A stretch of 64,000 bases of DNA. It comes from Druceiella hillmani. Its lineage: Eukaryota; Arthropoda; Insecta; Lepidoptera; Hepialidae. How positions within the stretch are numbered: the stretch's first letter is position 1; the number at the start of each line of letters is the position of its first letter. The position numbers were made by a program, and so were the translations under genes. Below, one piece after another: positions 3,431 to 50,921 of this stretch. Location: assembly GCA_039881145.1 (NCBI GenBank), contig JAYKKI010000032.1, forward strand, positions 14,449,501 through 14,513,500. The letters are read 5' to 3'. The notes under the pieces are model-generated. The model made no database searches, was not told the origin of the DNA, and worked only from the letters and a program-made list of their open reading frames with translations.

Positions 3431-5606
3431 TTTTCTTGCACCAGGTTCCTTTTTTTTATTTGTCTTATAATTTTTTTTTTTCAATTAAGTCTTCAGATTA
3501 ACAAGTTCTACTTTTGTTCGAAAATTTGTCTGTGTATTCAAATATATAAATTTACAGGAGAAAAACTAAAATTTTAGATGTATCCTTATTTCGACATTTA
3601 ATGCACAAACCTTGTAGGAGGATGAAAAGTCGACCCTCCTGCTGAGTTTTTCACCGCCTGTGAAATTTTACCAAAAATATACTTGGAAACGGTTGGAGTT
3701 TTCAAATGATAGATTTAAGAACATTTCACGTTCAGAATGATGAGGACTATCAGTCCTTTGAAAATACGTTGTAAGAAAAAATACATCCTGTATACTTATG
3801 TCCGTGCTCTTACTTAAGCTATGCTCTTATCACCGACCAACGTAATGATCAGCTACATTTGGGCTAGATTTAATGGAGATAGATGAATATTCGAAGTGCA
3901 AAAACAGGACAAATGAATATACCAACTTCCTTTTCTTTTTTACAATATTATTTATAAGATTACTGGTTTTTTACATTTAATATATTTTTCGTGAAATTTA
4001 ACTATAATTTTAGAACTCTAGATGCGATATTGGAATCTATCATCGAAAATATTCATCCAGGGATAGCAATATAACCGCAAAATGACACTTTACACAACTT
4101 ATCGACAGTAAATAAGTACATTAATAAACCTTTATGATCTATGTATTCAATATTAAGGTACTTTGATTTTCAATAGGCACATACCACAATCCTCACTAGT
4201 TTAATATTGAATCAGCCATTTAGTAATTTCCCTAGTTATTTGAAAATTACTGTGATTAATCGGAATTCTGGAGAAAATTCATGAATCAAAGAGAAGGAAA
4301 AACAGGAAGGAGAATATGAACAAATTTAGATTGCTTTAAATTTATTACATAAATCTAGGATCTGCTTGTGGAAATTAGTGATATTGTACCAACAATATGA
4401 ATATTAAAAAAATATTTAATCGTGCTTTTGCGCGAAACTGTATCAGTTGGCAGGTAGAGAATAATAAAGAAGGGAAGAGTTAAAAATACGGTCGCGTCCT
4501 TTAGCGGACGAAGAAGGAGAGGGATACCGCGATAGATAGGCAGGTATACGCATGACATTATTATGTCGGGTACGTCCTTTTGTATTTTGGACAATCGGCT
4601 TCGTGTGTAATAAAGATATTATGACGACGCAATTCTTCACAGGTTCTCATGGCTCTCAAACTGTTTTCTTATTTTTGAATGATTTGTAGTTTAACGCACC
4701 ATAATTAAGACGTGTATATATTTTATAATCTTTTAAAGAAATCTATATTGCACATATAATTGTTGTATGCTTTTTATTATCTAGCGAGCATGGCTAACTT
4801 AAATTATGATGATAGAATTAATTATAACTCGCGTAATTTTACAATTAATGAAACTCTAAAAAATGGTAAGGTTTTTGAAATATTTTTAACTATTTGTAAC
4901 CATCTTAATTCAGTTTTGAAAAATGACATGGTTCCATCCGTTGGCCTGTAAGTACGTCTGTACGTGTGTATGTGCGAAGACACGGTCCAAGCGAGACTCT
5001 TGATGGATTTTGTTGACTTTTTCTATCGATTCAAAATAAAGCACGTTTTTACAATGGTTCACAATGAAAACAAAAATAAAATCTGATAAAACGAGATGAA
5101 ATATATAAATATTTTACAATATTTGACAGAAAAAATAGTTTTTTTGTATGTTTTTAGCTGTATATCTTTTGTCAACCTAATTTAAAATAAAACGTATTTT
5201 TTTTCAGAATAGTTTGATTAAACAGTTGTTAACATATAGTTTTTCACACACAGCCTATTCTAGTGATGGTGTAGATCGTTCAGTGATTTAGAACAATATT
5301 TACGAAATCAGCTTCATAATTAAGATTTTACGTTTCACGTTTTCAAAATTTTAATACTGAAATTGCTTGTTCAGTAGCAACAAATCCACGTTCCAATATT
5401 TTCGAAAATATTCGTGATCTTTCAATATGGAACTGCATTCGACTGTCGAATCCTTACTGGTCATAAAATTGGGTCATTAAATAAACTTTATTCAAATATT
5501 GTATTAAACATGTTTGTGGCAACACATTTTATTGTTCAATATGTTATGGAAACATGCTTGTATTAAACATGTTTATGGAAGTATATATCACATCTATATA
5601 TATCAT
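3431..5606. other. AT-rich DNA, mostly featureless
   Basis: No gene recognised. At 3685-3715 a GGAAACGGTTGGAGTTTTCA segment repeats one at 2937-2956 (GGAAACGGTTAGAGTTTTCA), which suggests an old shared repeat. A GC-richer patch at 4440-4640 has open frames on the minus strand without recognisable domains. A pair of near-direct repeats containing TGTATTAAACATGTTT lies around 5499-5577. Confidence 0.4.
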
Positions 5607-5706
5607 ATATTGAATATATTTGGCGTTAATTTTGTAGAAATTCATTATTCACAATTAAATGAAACTACGTGATGTAGTATTATTTCTACTATCTTTAATT
5701 TCTTTA

Positions 5707-5747
5707 CCACGACCTAGGTTTCGTTGTATTACAACATCTTCAGGTGG
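5707..5747 (-). ncRNA. Hammerhead ribozyme-like motif, copy A, minus strand
   Basis: On the minus strand the order is CCAC (stem I), CTGAAGA (core; TCTTCAG on plus at 5737-5743), an extra T, GTTGT-AAT-ACAAC (stem II), GAAA (core), CCTAGG (stem III), the cleavage triplet GTC, then GTGG closing stem I (CCAC on plus at 5707-5710). All conserved core residues are intact. It is the exact mirror of the plus-strand motif in the same element. Confidence 0.5.
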
Positions 5748-5798
5748 GATATAGGCAAAGATCTTTGCTTATATCCCACCTGAGTCTTTGCTTATATC

Positions 5799-5839
5799 CC
5801 ACCTGAAGATGTTGTAATACAACGAAACCTAGGTCGTGG
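5799..5839 (+). ncRNA. Hammerhead ribozyme-like motif, copy A, plus strand
   Basis: Stem I is CCAC (5799-5802) with GTGG (5836-5839). The C3-A9 core is CTGAAGA (5803-5809). One extra T (5810) precedes stem II, GTTGT (5811-5815) with ACAAC (5819-5823) closed by an AAT loop. G12-A15.1 is GAAA (5824-5827). The stem III strands form CCTAGG (5828-5833), then T16.1 and C17 (5834-5835), so cleavage would fall between 5835 and 5836. Open ends lie in stem I, so it is type I. A stem III this short cannot close well in a monomer, but CCTAGG is self-complementary and could form a dimer, as proposed for Penelope and retrozyme hammerheads. An extra base at the same place is known in a viroid hammerhead. 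Confidence 0.55.
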
Positions 5840-6433
5840 TAAAGAAATTAAAGATAGTAGAAATAATACTACATCACGTAGTTTCATTTAATTGTGTATA
5901 TATATCATATCTATGATTACTAATTTTCCGTTACTATTTCCTTCCTTACTGGCTTTTAAGTCATAGAAATTGCTATACGATCGTAGAAATTACTATATAA
6001 TCGTAGAAATTAATATATCGTTGTCTACGGATAGATTCCGATATGAGTTATAAATAAAAAAAAGACATTTAGTCCATCTTGTTTCCTTTGTTGAGCGCTA
6101 AATCAAATGTATACAGATAATGAAATTATGACAAAATCAAATTTGTGGGTGCATAACCATGGATAAGTTAACCACTGGATAGTGCCTAAGAACACAGTTG
6201 TATGAAAACCAAGTTAGCCACTACTCATTAGGGTAAACGTACCACTTGACACCGTTAGCCAATTAGTGCTTTGTCCCTTGGGGTAGCATAGTGACGTAGT
6301 TTGCTCGATACTTACGTATTTTCGATATGTGTCAAAGGGTTTTAACAAATTAAAAACATCGTTATTTAAAACGAATATTTTAGTTATATTATAATCACAA
6401 TAATAATTTAAAAAACTATTGCCCGAAATAATG

Positions 6434-6499
<66 letters not shown>

Positions 6500-10386: not shown

Positions 10387-10504
10387 TGTCCTTTTGTGTA
10401 AATTATCATGTCGTTTACTTAAATACTGTGCAATGTTAGTTTTGTTTGATAAATATTTTTAAGCAGTTTAAACTATATAAATCTTGTTTATTAATGTAAC
10501 TCAA
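10387..10504 (+). repeat. copia 5' LTR remnant
   Basis: About 118 bp that match 12342-12475, sharing TACTGTGCAATGTTAGTTTT, GTTTGATAAAT against GTTTGAATAAAA, and TTTAAACTATATAAATCTTG. It begins TG as LTRs do. It runs directly into reverse transcriptase sequence at about 10503 with no primer binding site, gag or integrase, so the 5' part of the element has been deleted. Confidence 0.7.
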
Positions 10505-10723
10505 ATTGGTTGTGTCCAAATCTCTATACGGTTTAAAACAAGCATCTCGTTGTTGGAGCAAGAACTTTACTAATTTTTTATTGAACTTTGATTGTGTTCA
10601 GTCACAACCAGACAATTGTGTGTTCGTAAGTAATTTTCATGCCATTAAAGCTTTATTGATTTTATATGTTGCCGATGCTTTGATTATGTCTCAGTCAAAT
10701 ATTGTACTAAACCAAATTGTAAG
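10503..10723 (+). pseudogene. Ty1/copia pol fragment: reverse transcriptase
   Basis: The translation contains SLYGLKQASRCW, the hallmark (S/K)LYGLKQ(A/S)xRxW motif of copia reverse transcriptase, followed by a DNCVF-type stretch and ALLILYVADAL, where the catalytic YVDD is changed to YVAD. It therefore lacks a catalytic aspartate. The N-terminal half of the polymerase is missing, because the 5' LTR abuts the fragment. The frame is interrupted at 10724 by a DNA transposon and resumes at 11300. It is a dead fragment. Confidence 0.88.
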
Positions 10724-11299
10724 GTACTTGCTTAGATTGAAACGAAAAGGAAAGATACGGTACGTTTTAATGGTGCACGTCCACGTAAACCAGGTCCAAT
10801 GGACCTGGTTGTGTTTTGTTGAATTCAGTCGTATGCGGACCGGCGGTTCGCATAGACATGGAGTTCATGAAATTAAAATTGCCAACATTTTCAGTGAAAT
10901 CGATCCAAAATTGCCTTTTAGTATTTTTACCACATCCATTAACAATTTACAAAACAAAAACATGACACATGAAGTTAATTTTTATGCGTAATTATATAAC
11001 AATATTACAAGTTTTCATAAAAATGGTTTCTTTCATTACCGTCATGTTTGAATGACAGCAGCACGCGCAGACGCCGTGAGAAGCTAAGATACTAACAATG
11101 CGTTTGATGCAAATTGTCAATCGCTCGCCCTGCAGTCACAATGCACTGCTTTGTCTCTTTCGATTAATTTTACATGTAGGCAATTTGTAATTGCAGCTGT
11201 GGGAGTTTGTGTGGGTGTGTTATACCTATGCTCGTTTTGTATTTATGTACAGTAATAGTGTACCGTATCTTCCCATTTTTTGTTTTAATCTAAGGGTAC
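10724..11299 (+). mobile_element. Non-autonomous DNA transposon flanked by GTAC, inserted in copia pol
   Basis: Flanked by GTAC at 10724-10727 and 11296-11299. Just inside lie inverted ends of about 35 bp: CTTAGATTGAAACGAAAA then GGAAAGATACGGTAC on the left, and on the right the complement of CTTAGATTAAAACAAAAA then GGGAAGATACGGTAC. Removing the element with one GTAC puts the copia reading frame back in phase across the junction, which strongly supports GTAC as a 4-bp target duplication. The interior has a perfect 11-bp hairpin at 10789-10811 and no transposase. The superfamily is not assigned. The open frame running from copia into it (to 10991) is a chance read-through. Confidence 0.8.
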
Positions 11300-12169
11300 A
11301 TGAAGCGAAGATTTAATATTAAAGAGTAGAATTTAAATTACTTTTTTAGGTTAGAAATTTTAAAAACTGATAATTCTGTGTTTTTATCAGTCAACGACAA
11401 TATATTAAGCAGTTAATAAATAAATTTAATATGAGTATGGCGCGTCCCTGTAATACATCTGTTGATGTAAATGTTCATATAAATAAAAATGTTGATAATC
11501 AGCAGATTAATTTTCACTACAGGGAGGCCATAGGGTCATTATTGTTTTTATCTACAGCAACTAGGTCAGATATTTCATATGGTGTCAATCTATTAAGTCG
11601 ATATACTTATAAGCCAAGTATACATCATGTTACTCAGATTAAGAGAGTAATTCGTTATCTTATTAAAACTAAAGATTTATGTGCAAAGTATCGAGGCGAT
11701 GAAAATTTCATTGGATAGCCAGACTTAGATTTTGTTGGGAATTTGGAAAATCAACCACTGGTTATATTTTTATATTGAATGGTAGTCCTACATCAAGAAC
11801 TGGTCAAAAATAATTTTGTATTGCCTTATCGACAACTGAGGATGAATTTAAGGCTGGATGTGAAGCTGCCAAGAATATTTTATGGTTAAGACACTTTTCA
11901 AAGAAATTGATATTAGTCAGAACTGCATAACTCTATGTATTGATAATGAAAGTACTCTTAAAGTAAACTGGAATATTTATATCCAGTTTACCTCAAGAAG
12001 ACAAAGCACATTGATTTTAAATTTCATTTTATTAGAGGGACCTCCCTCACAGCAAAAGTTAATTGATATTAAGTATGTACAAAGTTAACAACTGGCTGAT
12101 ATTTTTGATAAGGCTCTACCTACTCCTAAATTTGGACATATAAGAGATGTAATATTGTCTGTTATGTAG
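11300..12169 (+). pseudogene. Ty1/copia pol fragment: RT thumb/connection and RNase H
   Basis: Continues the copia polymerase after the transposon insertion. There is a FNIKE and LGLEI-type segment with frameshifts (11310-11365), a YIKQLINKFNM stretch, then YREAIGSLLFLSTATRSDIS with GVNLLSRY, the classic copia connection domain (11431-11718). RNase H-type sequence follows at 11882-12088, and LADIF, KALPTPKF and a terminal stop lie at about 12092-12169. Several frameshifts and a TAG at 11716-11718 break it. Last comes the 3' LTR remnant. Confidence 0.88.
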
Positions 12170-22689: not shown

Positions 22690-22940
22690 CATCACAATCA
22701 TTAGTTCGTCGACTTCCAGTATTGGATATAAGCTTTTCATAAATCTCTCTATCTACTTCTGCTGACAGTCTCCCGATTCCGGCGTTTATCAGTCACTGCC
22801 TGGGTATCATTAAGTTGATTGTTTGAATGCTTCTGATATTATTAATGTAAGTCTTATGCGATATGACCCCATTTCTGATATAGTTATGAGGAGAAAATCG
22901 CAATGCAGACTTCCCCGTTATTCCTTGTACTGCTTTTAAC
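22690..22940 (+). repeat. Decayed LINE-type repeat fragment
   Basis: CGTCGACTTCCAGTATTGGA followed by TATAAGCTTTTCATAAATCT and CTGACAGTCTCCCGATTCCG resembles a degenerate version of a non-LTR retrotransposon block common in moths (CGTCCACTGCTGGACATAGG type). It is too decayed for confident assignment. Confidence 0.35.
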
Positions 22941-22984
22941 TTCAGCGCGATTATGTTGGTGCATGTTCATGTGTTATATTCGTA

Positions 22985-23355
22985 TATTACATTATGCATT
23001 GATTACTGTGAACAATTAGACCGATTAGCTAAAAAATTGAGTAGTCCACAGGATCGAATTTATTTTCTACATGATAATGCTAGACCACATGTTGCAAAAC
23101 GTACTTGTAATAGATTAGAGGAACTCTGCTGGGTTCTACTCACTCGTCCACCATATTCGCCGGACATTACACCCTCTGATTACCATTTATTCAGGGCTCT
23201 AAGTAACCGTTTACGTGAAAAAAAATCAACGTTAAAGAAGATCTCCAAAACGGCCTCAAACAGTTTTTTGAATCAAAGTCACCGGAATTTTACAAGAAAG
23301 GTATATATTGTCACCGCCAACTAGATGGTGACAAGTATATATATAACGACTAAAA
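22985..23355 (+). pseudogene. mariner transposase C-terminal remnant
   Basis: The translation has YCEQLDRLAKKL, then FLHDNARPHVAK and LLTRPPYSPDITPSDYHLFRAL. These match the mariner (DD34D) blocks around the second catalytic aspartate (HDNARPH) and the PHPPYSPDLAPSDYHLF motif holding the third. The catalytic residues of these two blocks are present, although histidine in the first Pro block is replaced (TRPPYSP). A frameshift lies between about 23210 and 23245; the C-terminus continues in another frame as FFESKSPEFYKKGI and ends near 23350. The N-terminal half, with the helix-turn-helix and the first aspartate, is absent, and no terminal inverted repeats were found. It is inactive. Confidence 0.9.
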
Positions 23356-37300: not shown

Positions 37301-37935
37301 AAGTGACGTGCTATGTTATTTTTCTATCTATTTTTCCCTCTGATAACTCCTACAATTTTACCCTCAAATTTTTCAATCAAAGTTTAAATTAAATTATTTC
37401 ATTTAACTTACTCCAGTGATTTCAGAAAACTTCAATAATTATGGAACCCTACTTTCTGTTAGTTTATAAACGTATTATACTAGTTTCTTTTTAAATACGT
37501 TGAAATAATTAAAAAAAATATTCTACAATTACGGGTCGTGTCTAGAACTTAAAATTTGAATTTAATTTAATATTAATATAAATTTAAAATAATATAAGTT
37601 CTAGATTTTTCATATCATTGGCGTACTATTTACTTACTTTTGTCAAACTACTTTATAAAGAAACATGTTTATGTTAACAATTAGTATAAATAATTGTTAA
37701 CATAACTAAAACTTATAGTTTAATAATTTATATACATATGTATATGGGCTCGCTTCTTTTTTTCCTTTGAAAAACTTATAACAGTGTGTCCTTGATTTAT
37801 AGAATATTGAATATATTTGGCGTTAATTTTGTAGAAATTCATTATTCACAATTAAATGAAACTACGTGATGTAGTATTATTTCTACTTTCTTTAAGTTCT
37901 TTATCACGACCTAGGTTTCGTTATATTACAACATA

Positions 37936-38311
37936 TTATTATTTATTGTTATTTTTTATGAATAGTACGTATGGCGGACTTATTGCTTAATGAGCAATCT
38001 CTTTCAGTCAACCATAACAATTTGTATTGAAATGTAGTTGGTACTGTAAGAGATTTTACAATGAGAATTCTTCATAGCACATTAGACAAAAAAAATACAA
38101 AATTAAATAAAAATAGAAAACAAAATATTGTCATGATTTGGGATGGGACAGGCAGGAAAGGGCAAGTACACAAAGGAAAAGGTTTCAGGAGATGCAGAAC
38201 TTTTTCACTCGATCTTTGAAAATATTTAGAGACGACATTTGAGAAGTGACCTGTATTCAGAAATGTGATCATATTTTCTGAGGCCGAAGATATACCGAAT
38301 GCATAAATTTA
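37936..38311 (-). mobile_element. SINE/LINE 3'-tail insertion nested in palindromic copy B
   Basis: On the minus strand it shares its 3' half with the SINEs at 2732-2915 and 41304-41560, including GTAAAATCTCTTACAGTACC, GGTTGACTGAAAGAGATTGC and AATAAGTCCGCCATACG, ending in AATAAATAATAAT. The upstream part (38101-38311) has no tRNA-like head and looks like unrelated or LINE-derived sequence. It may be the LINE partner of the SINEs or a chimeric copy. Confidence 0.55.
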
Positions 38312-38340
38312 GGCTATTAGCAAAGATCTTTACTAATAGC

Positions 38341-38381
38341 CCACCTAAAGATGTAGTAATACAACGAAACCTAGGTCGTGG
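38341..38381 (+). ncRNA. Degenerate hammerhead-like motif, copy B
   Basis: Stem I CCAC/GTGG, GAAA, CCTAGG and GTC are intact. The core reads CTAAAGA, losing G5, and stem II pairs GTAGT with ACAAC imperfectly. Loss of G5 should abolish activity. Confidence 0.45.
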
Positions 38382-38589
38382 TAAAGAACTTAAAGAAAGT
38401 AGAAATAAGACCACATCACGTAGTTTCATTTAATTGTGAATTATAGAAGTTAGGTCTAAAATAAACCTATTCGTACCAATTTTATTAGAGCTTATTTTCA
38501 CATACGCATTTAAAAATCGTTTTTAGTTTTTAATGAATTCTTACATTAGACTATGCGAGAATATTTTGAATCTGATTCATCTATGACTA

Positions 38590-41166: not shown

Positions 41167-41279
41167 ATCTTTGCTAATAGCTCACCTGAAGATGTTGTAA
41201 TACAACGAAAGCCAGGTCGCGGTAAAGAACTTAAAGACAGTACAAATAATACTACATCACGTAGTTTCATTTAATTGTG
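41167..41279 (+). mobile_element. Palindromic hammerhead-bearing element, copy C (half, right arm only)
   Basis: Starts in the spacer (ATCTTTGCTAATAGCTCACC) and runs to the arm end (TTTCATTTAATTG). No left arm or unique flank is present. The motif at 41182-41222 keeps CTGAAGA, stem II and GAAA. The base after GAAA is G instead of C, stem III reads GCCAGG, and stem I has GCGG against TCAC, so it is degenerate. A SINE begins about 25 bp downstream. Confidence 0.75.
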
Positions 41280-41303
41280 CATTTTGAATATTCATGTTGA
41301 TAC

Positions 41304-42545: not shown

Positions 42546-43344
42546 TGATATTTGGGATAATCATTAATGCAAACTTCAGCTAAGTATCTATAAAAATACA
42601 GAATGTTTTTTTATGGAATATATTATAGAGTTTGATAGGATTTTTTTAGTGCCACCTTATATTAAATAGACGTAGTTTACGCAAATAAAAACGCGGTATT
42701 TGGTGTCATTACAATTGATGTCGGGTGAAAATGGACTTTTCAATTTCCAATCTCAATCCATGGATTTTCTATCTAAAGTAGCTATAGCTAAGTATTCTAA
42801 AGTAGGTTATGCTCGTTAACAATTTCCGTATTTCCGTGCTTTATTTGTACTGCTGTTTTATTGGGCGTATTTCAATTATTTGGTCCACGTTCAAAAGGGA
42901 TAAGGGAAATCGCGTCGCAAGGTTTTTTGATTACATAATTGCTGTATTATTTCACAAGGATGCTGCTGCATATTATCCTAATTTTTTCTTTGTTATTGTA
43001 AGTATAATGTCTTATTTAATTCTATTTACCTATTTGCTATATTCTTGCATGTTTACTATTCTTCGATAAGAAATCTGTCGCATTTTCTTTTAATTACCTA
43101 CTCGCTATACAATAGATATGAGAATACTATCGTGCGTTCTTCTAATTCCCTACTTGCTATAGGGTTTTATAAGAAATATGTCATTACCTCCTACATATGT
43201 TTCTGGAAAAGTACTGGAAACGTAACTATAAATTAATGAGCATCGAGCATCAGTTAAAATGTTTTTATCCCATACTATATTTTATTTCCGTTATTTCAGT
43301 AAAATAAAACATAAAATTTATCTTAACTATAATAATAAACATAG

Positions 43345-43611
43345 ACAATTAAATGAAACTACGTGATGTAGTATTATTTGTACTTTCTTTAAGTTTTTTA
43401 CCACGACCTAGGTTTCATTGTATTACAACATCTTCAGGTGGGCTATTAGCAAAGATGATATCTTTGCTAATAGCCCTCTTGAAAATGTTGTAATACAGCG
43501 AAATCTAGGTCGTGGTAAAGAACTTAAAGAAAGAAATAATACTACATCACGTAGTTTCATTTAATTATGAATAATGAATTTCTACAAAATTAATGCCAAA
43601 TATATTCAATA
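43345..43611 (-). mobile_element. Palindromic hammerhead-bearing element, copy D
   Basis: The left arm (43345-43453), spacer, right arm (43461-43567) and unique flank (43568-43611) are arranged in reverse orientation relative to copy A. The minus-strand motif in the left arm (43401-43441) keeps all core bases. The plus-strand motif in the right arm has C3 to T and G8 to A. Confidence 0.8.
43401..43441 (-). ncRNA. Hammerhead ribozyme-like motif, copy D, minus strand
   Basis: Relative to copy A only one base differs: C to T at position 11.1, giving a G-U pair at the base of stem II. Core CTGAAGA and GAAA, stem III CCTAGG, the GTC triplet and stem I CCAC/GTGG are intact. Confidence 0.45.
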
Positions 43612-44532
43612 AATATAGAATTTTAATACTTAATAACTCACGTAAAACCCTAAGGATTTTTCGTATTTAAGAACTTTCCTCTGATAAAGGACATCAACGC
43701 GGTCCGATAACTGTTTCAATTTAATATCGTGACGGCCTAAATATCATGTAACTAATAACTCACACATTAACCCCGAAAAAGATACACGCCGAAAGAATGT
43801 CCTAAAAAAATATATCTTTTTTAATCTTTAACATTAGGCAAATGTAAAAAAAACGTAAAGACAAAAATATTTATTCATTAAAATACTTAGTCGTAGTGAA
43901 AAGATTGAAGTCTTAGTTAGTCTGAAAACACTTAGTCATAGTGATAATCGAACATGAAAAATTATATTAGTCTCTTCTTGGGCAGGTGATGCTTCTCATT
44001 ACCATAATACATATATTAGTAAGCATCATGACTTTGTTTTGAGTTCAAATCAACTCTTGTTATTTTCCTGTTGTAAAAAATAGTTTAAAATCATTAGTTT
44101 TTAAGAGTCGTTGATTAAAGGTTGTTAAAGATGGATCCTAATCTATTAATAAGACGTTGGCTATGTTAGTAATTATATTACTTTTTGTTATTTGTTTAAA
44201 GGTAATATTTTCCAATGAAAATTCTAATTTTGTTTTGTACTCCTAACATAGATTCATAATTTATTGCGCTACCGTTCGTACTGGTAAAATTACGAAATCT
44301 ACGATATTTTAACCAAGCTAATGTTAAAAATGTTTTGGTAACTTGCAGTAATGATCGGTACAGTTTGCTACTTCTGGTTTTGATGGTATCTCTATAATCC
44401 AATGATTAAGTAAATATTTATGTCATATTTTTATTAAAATAGGTATGTTATACCCGTGTATTATACTTGCGTACATCGGCGTTTCTTTTTTTTCAAATGG
44501 CATATTAATGGAAAGAGCAAATTGTACGAATT

Positions 44533-50640: not shown

Positions 50641-50646
50641 TGGTCC

Positions 50647-50921
50647 ACAATTAAATGAAACTACGTGATGTAGTATTATTTCTACTATCTTTAACTTCTT
50701 TACCACGACCTAGGTTTCGTTGTATTACAACATCTTCAGGTGGGATATTAGCAAAGATCTTCGTTATCTTTGCTAATATCCCACCTGAACATGTTGTAAT
50801 ACAACGAAACCTAGGTCGTGGTAAAGAAGTTAAAGATAGTAGAAATAATACTACATCACGTAGTTTCATTTAATTGTGAATAATGAATTTCTACAAAATT
50901 AACGCCAAATATATTCAATAT
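50647..50921 (-). mobile_element. Palindromic hammerhead-bearing element, copy E
   Basis: The left arm (50647-50755), short spacer, right arm (50767-50876) and unique flank (50877-50921) run opposite to copy A. The arms pair over more than 100 bp with very few mismatches. Open frames of 72 codons on both strands encode nearly the same peptide, a direct result of the palindrome. Confidence 0.85.
50703..50743 (-). ncRNA. Hammerhead ribozyme-like motif, copy E, minus strand
   Basis: Identical in every base to the copy A motif: stem I CCAC/GTGG, CTGAAGA, extra T, stem II GTTGT/ACAAC, GAAA, CCTAGG, GTC. Its plus-strand partner at 50781-50821 carries CTGAACA, in which the catalytic G8 is C. Confidence 0.55.

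What the first reader, a model, noticed from the sequence alone, without database searches (positions are those of the whole stretch)
5799..5839. Hammerhead ribozyme-like core inside a dispersed palindromic element
All parts of a type I hammerhead can be placed: stem I CCAC/GTGG, CTGAAGA, stem II GTTGT/ACAAC with an AAT loop, GAAA, a two-pair self-complementary stem III CCTAGG, and a GTC cleavage triplet at 5833-5835. The one deviation is an extra T (5810) between A9 and stem II; an extra base at that position is known in a natural viroid hammerhead. Tiny stem III with open stem I is the style reported for Penelope-like elements and retrozymes, where cleavage is thought to use dimers. I know of no description of this family in this genome.
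Basis: partly seen in the sequence, partly recalled or inferred. Interest (0 to 1): 0.88.

Follow-up and report, generated by a model that had tools for sequence, protein, structure and literature searches.

The report
Penelope retrotransposon with paired-up hammerhead ribozyme
The 41 bases sit in the repeated end of an abundant Penelope-type jumping gene and are predicted to fold, probably two copies at a time, into an RNA that would cut itself, a trait already known for this kind of element.

Summary
The motif is real: all hammerhead core bases and three stems at 5799-5839, one extra T (5810); simulation gives 0.0024 such matches per 64 kb. The 'palindrome' is not a DNA transposon but two head-to-head pseudo-LTRs of a Penelope-like element (PLE), 5609-5896, with a one-sided 41-bp tail and an exact 14-bp target duplication. 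In the same genome this pseudo-LTR flanks PLE genes for reverse transcriptase and GIY-YIG endonuclease: 29 of 30 fetched endonuclease loci carry it, 21 with the identical 41 bases in ORF sense. It also precedes the ORF, the predicted cut lying 65 nt before the start codon. Hammerheads of PLEs that cleave as dimers are published, so the kind is known. Rfam does not score this copy; cleavage is untested. Weak hints, chosen after seeing the data: variants shared by both arms avoid the motif (0 of 36 against 8 of 34 neighbouring sites, P 0.002; P 0.30 in a wider set), and 3 of 16 mapped 5' ends fall 0-4 nt after the cut (P 0.006). The larger junction search did not complete.

The parts
5595..5608 (.). 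left target site duplication TATATATATCATAT
   Evidence: identical to 5897-5910; 26 of 27 compared copies show a flanking match of 12-18 nt with at most one mismatch, overlap with the element ends included
5609..5649 (-). 41-bp 'tail' on the inverted (left) pseudo-LTR; in PLE sense it holds an ATG (5645-5643) that in full PLE copies starts the RT-EN ORF
   Evidence: tail of 30-40 bp known in PLEs
5650..5761 (-). left pseudo-LTR arm, head-to-head with the right arm
   Evidence: inverted repeat 5646-5761 / 5785-5900, 98% complementary
5707..5747 (-). identical hammerhead motif on the minus strand; predicted cut between 5711 and 5710, 65 nt before the ATG at 5645
   Evidence: exact 41-mer match; distance
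5762..5784 (.). centre between the arms (extra copy of TCTTTGCTTATATCCCACCTGA)
5785..5896 (+). right pseudo-LTR arm, ending CATTTAATTGTG, without tail
5799..5839 (+). hammerhead motif of the finding: stem I 5799-5802/5836-5839, core 5803-5809, extra T 5810, stem II 5811-5815/5819-5823, GAAA 5824-5827, stem III CC/GG 5828-5829/5832-5833, predicted cut 5835|5836
5897..5910 (.). right target site duplication TATATATATCATAT
50646..50921 (-). second full palindromic copy with tail (BLAST bounds)
43332..43614 (-). third full palindromic copy with tail, more diverged (BLAST bounds)
37804..37937 (-). partial copy: tail and one arm only
38312..38445 (+). 5'-truncated copy ending CATTTAATTGTG
41167..41289 (+). 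5'-truncated copy; motif GAAAGCCAGGTCGCGG, stem III and stem I damaged

Best explanation
The 41 bases belong to the pseudo-LTR of an abundant Penelope-like retrotransposon, where they lie just upstream of its RT-endonuclease ORF, and they are predicted to be a minimal type I hammerhead ribozyme that likely works as a dimer and would cut the element's RNA 65 nt before the start codon. Shown by sequence: pseudo-LTR, tail, target duplications, an ORF with RT and GIY-YIG, the motif before and after the ORF, same-strand motifs 3,096 and 3,104 bp apart as in tandem units. Inferred: a read-through transcript of tandem units carries two motifs, whose CCTAGG stems III pair with each other into a double hammerhead, perhaps helped by the element's own protein as in the anole PLE, and this frees unit-length RNA with a 65-nt leader. 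The short palindromes are inferred to arise when the enzyme primes from both strands of a staggered cut on short pseudo-LTR RNA, giving two head-to-head copies joined in the middle. In such a palindrome the arms would pair with each other, so the motif there is probably silent.
For: Core and stems complete, 0.0024 expected per 64 kb. A Penelope GIY-YIG ORF has the pseudo-LTR on both sides, inverted and direct. Own genome: 6,151 first-look candidates for that endonuclease, 150 scored, 150 matching. Of 30 fetched endonuclease loci (some are two halves of one head-to-head pair) 29 carry the pseudo-LTR and 21 the exact 41-mer, in all 21 in ORF sense. RVT_1 over cut-off in the L064 ORF; GIY-YIG over cut-off in the L032 ORF (34.5 bits) and just under it in L064 (21.3 against 22.6). 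Start codon 65 nt after the cut; motifs 3,104 and 3,096 bp apart. Flanking duplications in 26 of 27 copies. The isolated 41-mer's dimer minimum-energy fold is exactly the double hammerhead, -23.0 against 2 x -7.2 kcal/mol. Variants shared by both arms of an element: 0 of 36 motif sites, 8 of 34 near-flank sites (Fisher 0.0019), while one-arm variants hit the motif 32 times at 19 sites. 3 of 16 mapped 5' ends between -100 and +110 fall at 0 to +4 of the cut, P 0.006. Known precedent: the anole PLE hammerhead cleaves and loses activity with C3G or G8C. Extra U is compatible with activity in a viroid hammerhead.
Against: No Rfam hammerhead support in the window or in four PLE loci. With 8 more bases upstream and 6 downstream, or more, the predicted dimer fold is a different rod, and 170 of 500 shuffles gain as much from dimerising, so folding energy is no evidence. 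No covariation: copies too young. The near-flank set and the 0 to +4 window were chosen after the data were seen. Against all 75 flank sites the both-arm test is P 0.052, and the 41 far-flank sites also have none. In the wider set of 66 elements shared variants do occur in the motif (3 sites, all C-to-T) and the difference is P 0.30. One junction of 16 (L070) lies exactly at the cut; 13 lie outside 0 to +4. In the anole PLE, hammerhead mutants still insert in vitro, no RNA ends were seen at the cut, and the ribozyme showed no cleavage without the PLE protein. 39 of 93 copies are no longer intact.
Confidence: 0.75

Rival explanations
1. The motif is a relic: the pseudo-LTR descends from PLEs with an active hammerhead, but in this family the ribozyme no longer cleaves (extra U, two-pair stem III) and the element moves as uncleaved RNA.
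For: No Rfam score; competing fold with flanks; palindrome arms start about 51 nt upstream of the cut, so their templates were not cut there; the anole enzyme used unprocessed RNA in vitro.
Against: Exact 41-mer in 21 of 30 endonuclease loci and 21 of 40 N-terminal loci or stretches, though young copies would be alike anyway; no both-arm variant in the motif; some 5' ends near the cut.
Confidence: 0.18
2. The palindromes matter as hairpin RNA: transcripts of the near-perfect 116-bp inverted repeat feed small-RNA silencing of the PLE, and the hammerhead likeness is incidental there.
For: Predicted hairpin of -183 kcal/mol; Rfam matches to microRNA precursors below cut-off, e.g. mir-5014 72.9 of 101 bits, as a long hairpin would give.
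Against: Matches are below gathering scores; no transcription data; the motif is also in PLE copies upstream and downstream of the ORF.
Confidence: 0.1
3. The element is a DNA transposon of the fold-back or MITE kind.
For: Long inverted repeats and many short copies.
Against: Tail on one end only, flanking duplications of varying length, 5'-truncated copies with a fixed 3' end, pseudo-LTR beside RT and GIY-YIG genes.
Confidence: 0.02
4. The conservation is coding: one frame through the motif (FANIPPEDVVIQRNLGRGKEIKDSRNNTTSRSFI*) is open and in frame with the PLE ORF.
For: Frame open in several copies and in L076.
Against: It ends in TAA before the ORF's ATG; of the shared variants, those at 5793, 5797, 5844 and 5847 change the amino acid (read by hand; no formal test).
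Confidence: 0.04

Closest known systems
Minimal type I hammerheads in PLE pseudo-LTRs (Cervera and de la Pena 2014; Lunse, Weinberg and Breaker 2017; neither paper held, known through)
   Same: Place in the pseudo-LTR near the ORF start, tiny stem III, expected dimer action; an ATG at A9 (5809-5811) with the cut 26 nt after it, the same distance as reported for the anole PLE.
   Different: One extra U between A9 and stem II (whether other PLE hammerheads have it could not be read); here that ATG closes at codon 3 and the ORF starts 65 nt after the cut.
Penelope elements of Adineta vaga and Drosophila virilis
   Same: Inverted pseudo-LTRs, optional 30-40 bp tail at one end, palindromes at the junction, target duplications of 8-10 bp, pseudo-LTR reaching into the ORF.
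   Different: Here a 280-300 bp palindrome of two pseudo-LTRs with almost nothing between is itself repeated: 27 such elements were compared out of 1,114 first-look candidates of unverified form.
CChMVd plus-strand viroid hammerhead
   Same: Extra base between A9 and G10.1.
   Different: A10 there, U here; unrelated host element.
Animal non-LTR retrozymes
   Same: Short non-coding retroelements with type I hammerheads, low G+C.
   Different: Those are tandem repeats expressed as circular RNAs; these are head-to-head palindromes.
Newt and axolotl satellite hammerheads
   Same: Very weak stem III, cleavage as dimers.
   Different: Tandem satellite repeats, no PLE gene.

Membership tests
Penelope-like element (EN+) | Reverse transcriptase domain | tested here: met
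   RVT_1 E 3.2e-14 in the L064 ORF; 913 homologues among the 7,991 candidates scored
Penelope-like element (EN+) | C-terminal GIY-YIG endonuclease | tested here: met
   PF01541 34.5 bits in the L032 ORF, over cut-off; 21.3 bits in the L064 ORF, just under cut-off 22.6
Penelope-like element (EN+) | Pseudo-LTRs, tandem or inverted, with optional tail | tested here: met
Penelope-like element (EN+) | Target site duplication of about 8-15 bp | tested here: met
   26 of 27 copies, no shuffled control
Type I hammerhead ribozyme | Conserved core CUGANGA, GAAA, A15.1-U16.1, H17 | tested here: met
   consensus and numbering recalled
Type I hammerhead ribozyme | No extra base between A9 and stem II | tested here: not met
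   extra U at 5810; tolerated in CChMVd
Type I hammerhead ribozyme | Three helices | tested here: inconclusive
   stems I and II fit; stem III has two pairs and a two-base loop and is plausible only as a dimer
Type I hammerhead ribozyme | Score with Rfam hammerhead models | tested here: not met
   the models were not calibrated here on known minimal PLE hammerheads
Type I hammerhead ribozyme | Compensatory changes in the stems | tested here: inconclusive
   copies nearly identical; G-C to G-U at 5823 in 4 of 66 elements
Type I hammerhead ribozyme | Self-cleavage at the predicted site | not testable with these tools
   needs RNA, and perhaps the element's protein
Retrozyme | Tandem short repeats expressed as circular RNA | tested here: not met
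   27 short elements have two head-to-head arms; circular RNA could not be tested

The most novel reading that the evidence does not exclude
Insertion junctions in this genome record hammerhead cleavage in the living animal: PLE RNA cut by a dimeric hammerhead carrying a natural U insertion in its core, 65 nt before the start codon, is itself a template for insertion, and the many short palindromes are snapshots of two-sided priming on uncut pseudo-LTR RNA.
Probability: 0.3. Interest if true: 0.72.

Novelty: new member of a known kind. Interest (0 to 1): 0.45.

Why it matters
What the hammerhead does for PLEs is unknown: a 2020 review calls its role 'still a mystery', and in the anole element hammerhead mutants still inserted in vitro. 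A genome with thousands of candidate PLE copies, many nearly identical, allows a direct test: if the 5' ends of insertions pile up at the cut, cleaved RNA is used in vivo. The extra U is also a natural case of a core insertion that, in a viroid hammerhead, was reported to speed up trans-cleavage relative to A.

Tried and rejected
DNA transposon or MITE: rejected by one-sided tail, 5' truncation, duplications of varying length and the PLE genes. Coding constraint through the motif: considered because one frame is open; not supported by the kind of shared variants. Folding energy as evidence: rejected, since shuffles dimerise as well in 170 of 500 and flanks change the fold. Rfam: no support. 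Relatives outside this genome: viral contigs gave 9 loci with only short reverse transcriptase matches; genome contigs gave 8, one of them a PLE fragment (L114, in a bacterial MAG, probably contamination) in which a core-pattern scan showed no complete hammerhead. A piece of the arm found nothing in viral contigs. Pfam PF01541 alone gives only two loci in this genome, so it badly undercounts PLEs. In one search I oriented L082 and L103 wrongly; one search corrects this, and only one search is used for counts. One search timed out and was redone.

Full report
Observation. The 41 bases are as described. A strict scan of core and stems finds four places in the window, all in one repeat family, and 35 hits in 920 Mb of simulated sequence, 0.0024 per window. 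Rfam gives no support. That counts little against a minimal hammerhead: reviews describe PLE hammerheads as lacking stem III or the loop contacts (passages). I had no known minimal PLE hammerhead to calibrate the Rfam models.

The element. The palindrome 5609-5896 has two arms of about 112 bp. One side carries a further 41-bp stretch, and the whole is flanked by an exact 14-bp duplication. Six copies or parts, this one included, lie in the window. In the own genome (2.586 Gb, 181 contigs) a first look gave 1,114 candidates, of which 40 were scored and matched (80 rows, both strands). Of 27 full copies compared, 26 have a flanking match of 12-18 nt with at most one mismatch, overlaps with the element ends included; no shuffled control was run. 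The two 5'-truncated copies in the window share the fixed end CATTTAATTGTG. These are marks of target-primed retrotransposition.

The family. A Pfam search for GIY-YIG found two loci; one is a Penelope endonuclease with the pseudo-LTR inverted before it and direct after it. Using that protein, 6,151 first-look candidates appeared, of which 150 were scored and matched. Thirty loci were fetched, some of them two halves of one head-to-head pair: 29 contain the pseudo-LTR and 21 the exact 41-mer, in all 21 downstream in ORF sense. Three loci also hold a second, inverted motif from a partner copy. A 783-aa open stretch at L064, cut at its N-terminus by the junction, has RVT_1 and a GIY-YIG hit just under cut-off. 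The best of 913 matching proteins are 44-45% identical; the named ones near the top are from Parnassius (43%) and Euphydryas (44%). L064 itself is a head-to-head pair of PLE parts, the large version of the palindrome in the window.

Unit anatomy. Of 40 copies or stretches that hold the N-terminus, 21 continue through an upstream pseudo-LTR and 19 break within the stretch examined. The ORF starts (MNFYKINAKYIQ...) in the tail, 65 nt after the predicted cut. Same-strand motifs, each followed by the N-terminus, lie 3,104 and 3,096 bp apart, as tandem units would; the sequence between was not read through. Published PLE features agree: tail of 30-40 bp, pseudo-LTR reaching into the ORF, inverted pairs, target duplications (passages of PMC11167929 and PMC3846280). 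In the anole PLE the hammerhead's cut is 26 bp after the start codon, with C3 and G8 before it. Here an ATG stands at 5809-5811 with the same 26-nt distance, but it closes at the third codon.

Does it work as a ribozyme? For: complete core; a dimer fold of the isolated 41-mer that is exactly a double hammerhead; the extra U, the base that in the CChMVd hammerhead raised trans-cleavage 3-4-fold over A (passages of PMC3705267); an anole relative that cleaves and is abolished by C3G or G8C. For, but weak: variants carried by both arms of an element, which probably predate its insertion, fall at 0 of 36 motif sites and 8 of 34 near-flank sites (P 0.0019), while one-arm variants hit the motif 32 times. 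The near-flank set was chosen after one search had shown where the variants lie; against all 75 flank sites the contrast is P 0.052, and in a wider set of 66 elements it is P 0.30. For, but small: 3 of 16 breaks between -100 and +110 fall at 0, +2 and +4 of the cut (P 0.006 under a uniform model, window chosen), one of them exactly at it (L070). Against: longer pieces prefer another fold, and shuffles dimerise as well in 170 of 500; palindrome arms start about 51 nt before the cut, so those templates were not cut there; the anole hammerhead is called protein-assisted, showing no cleavage without the PLE protein, and its mutants still insert in vitro. The first of these fits the last: the naked RNA may need the protein to reach the hammerhead fold.

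How the palindromes form. In 27 elements with both arms, within-element divergence is 3.6% against 4.5% between elements (permuted minimum 4.0%), and the two commonest variants sit in both arms or neither: position 5793 in 7 elements, position 5855 in 4. Other variants are mostly in one arm only (113 occurrences against 20 in both), and two positions, 5792 and 5844, show both patterns. So the arms were probably copied from like templates at each insertion, or have since been evened out. The anole enzyme cuts and extends both strands of its target. Two-sided priming on short pseudo-LTR RNA, once with and once without the tail, would give the observed form; this is inference.

Verdict. It is a new member of a known kind. 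The open and interesting part is whether cleavage feeds insertion, which this genome could settle. Papers: PMC11167929, PMC3846280, PMC7229834, PMC6155905, PMC7761336 and PMC3705267 were read as passages only; Cervera and de la Pena 2014 and Lunse et al. 2017 were not held and are known only through those papers.

Noticed in passing
window 10500-11718 +: Broken pieces of a Copia-type polyprotein (LYGLKQASRCW..., YREAIGSLLFLSTATRSDI...); family recognised from memory in the ORF list, not searched.
   Followed up: no
window 22890-23324 +: Piece of a mariner-type transposase (HDNARPHVAKRT...YSPDITPSDYHLF); recognised from memory in the ORF list.
   Followed up: no
window 6436-6490: Long TA microsatellite about 540 bp downstream of the element.
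   Followed up: no
window 37804-38445: A left arm with tail and a right arm in head-to-head order but 410 bp apart: a broken or two-step palindrome.
   Followed up: partly
L114 (JAGLBD010000131.1, a Pseudogulbenkiania MAG): A 3.6-kb contig in a bacterial MAG encodes a Penelope-type reverse transcriptase, probably animal contamination.
   Followed up: partly
L064, L065, L069, L070, L073: Several PLE copies in this genome are head-to-head pairs joined inside the ORF or pseudo-LTR, so an open frame can run from one half into the other, as in the 864-aa frame of L064.
   Followed up: partly
window 5787-5889 +: An open frame of about 34 codons through the motif lies in frame with the PLE ORF and ends in TAA just before its ATG; possibly an upstream reading frame.
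   Followed up: partly
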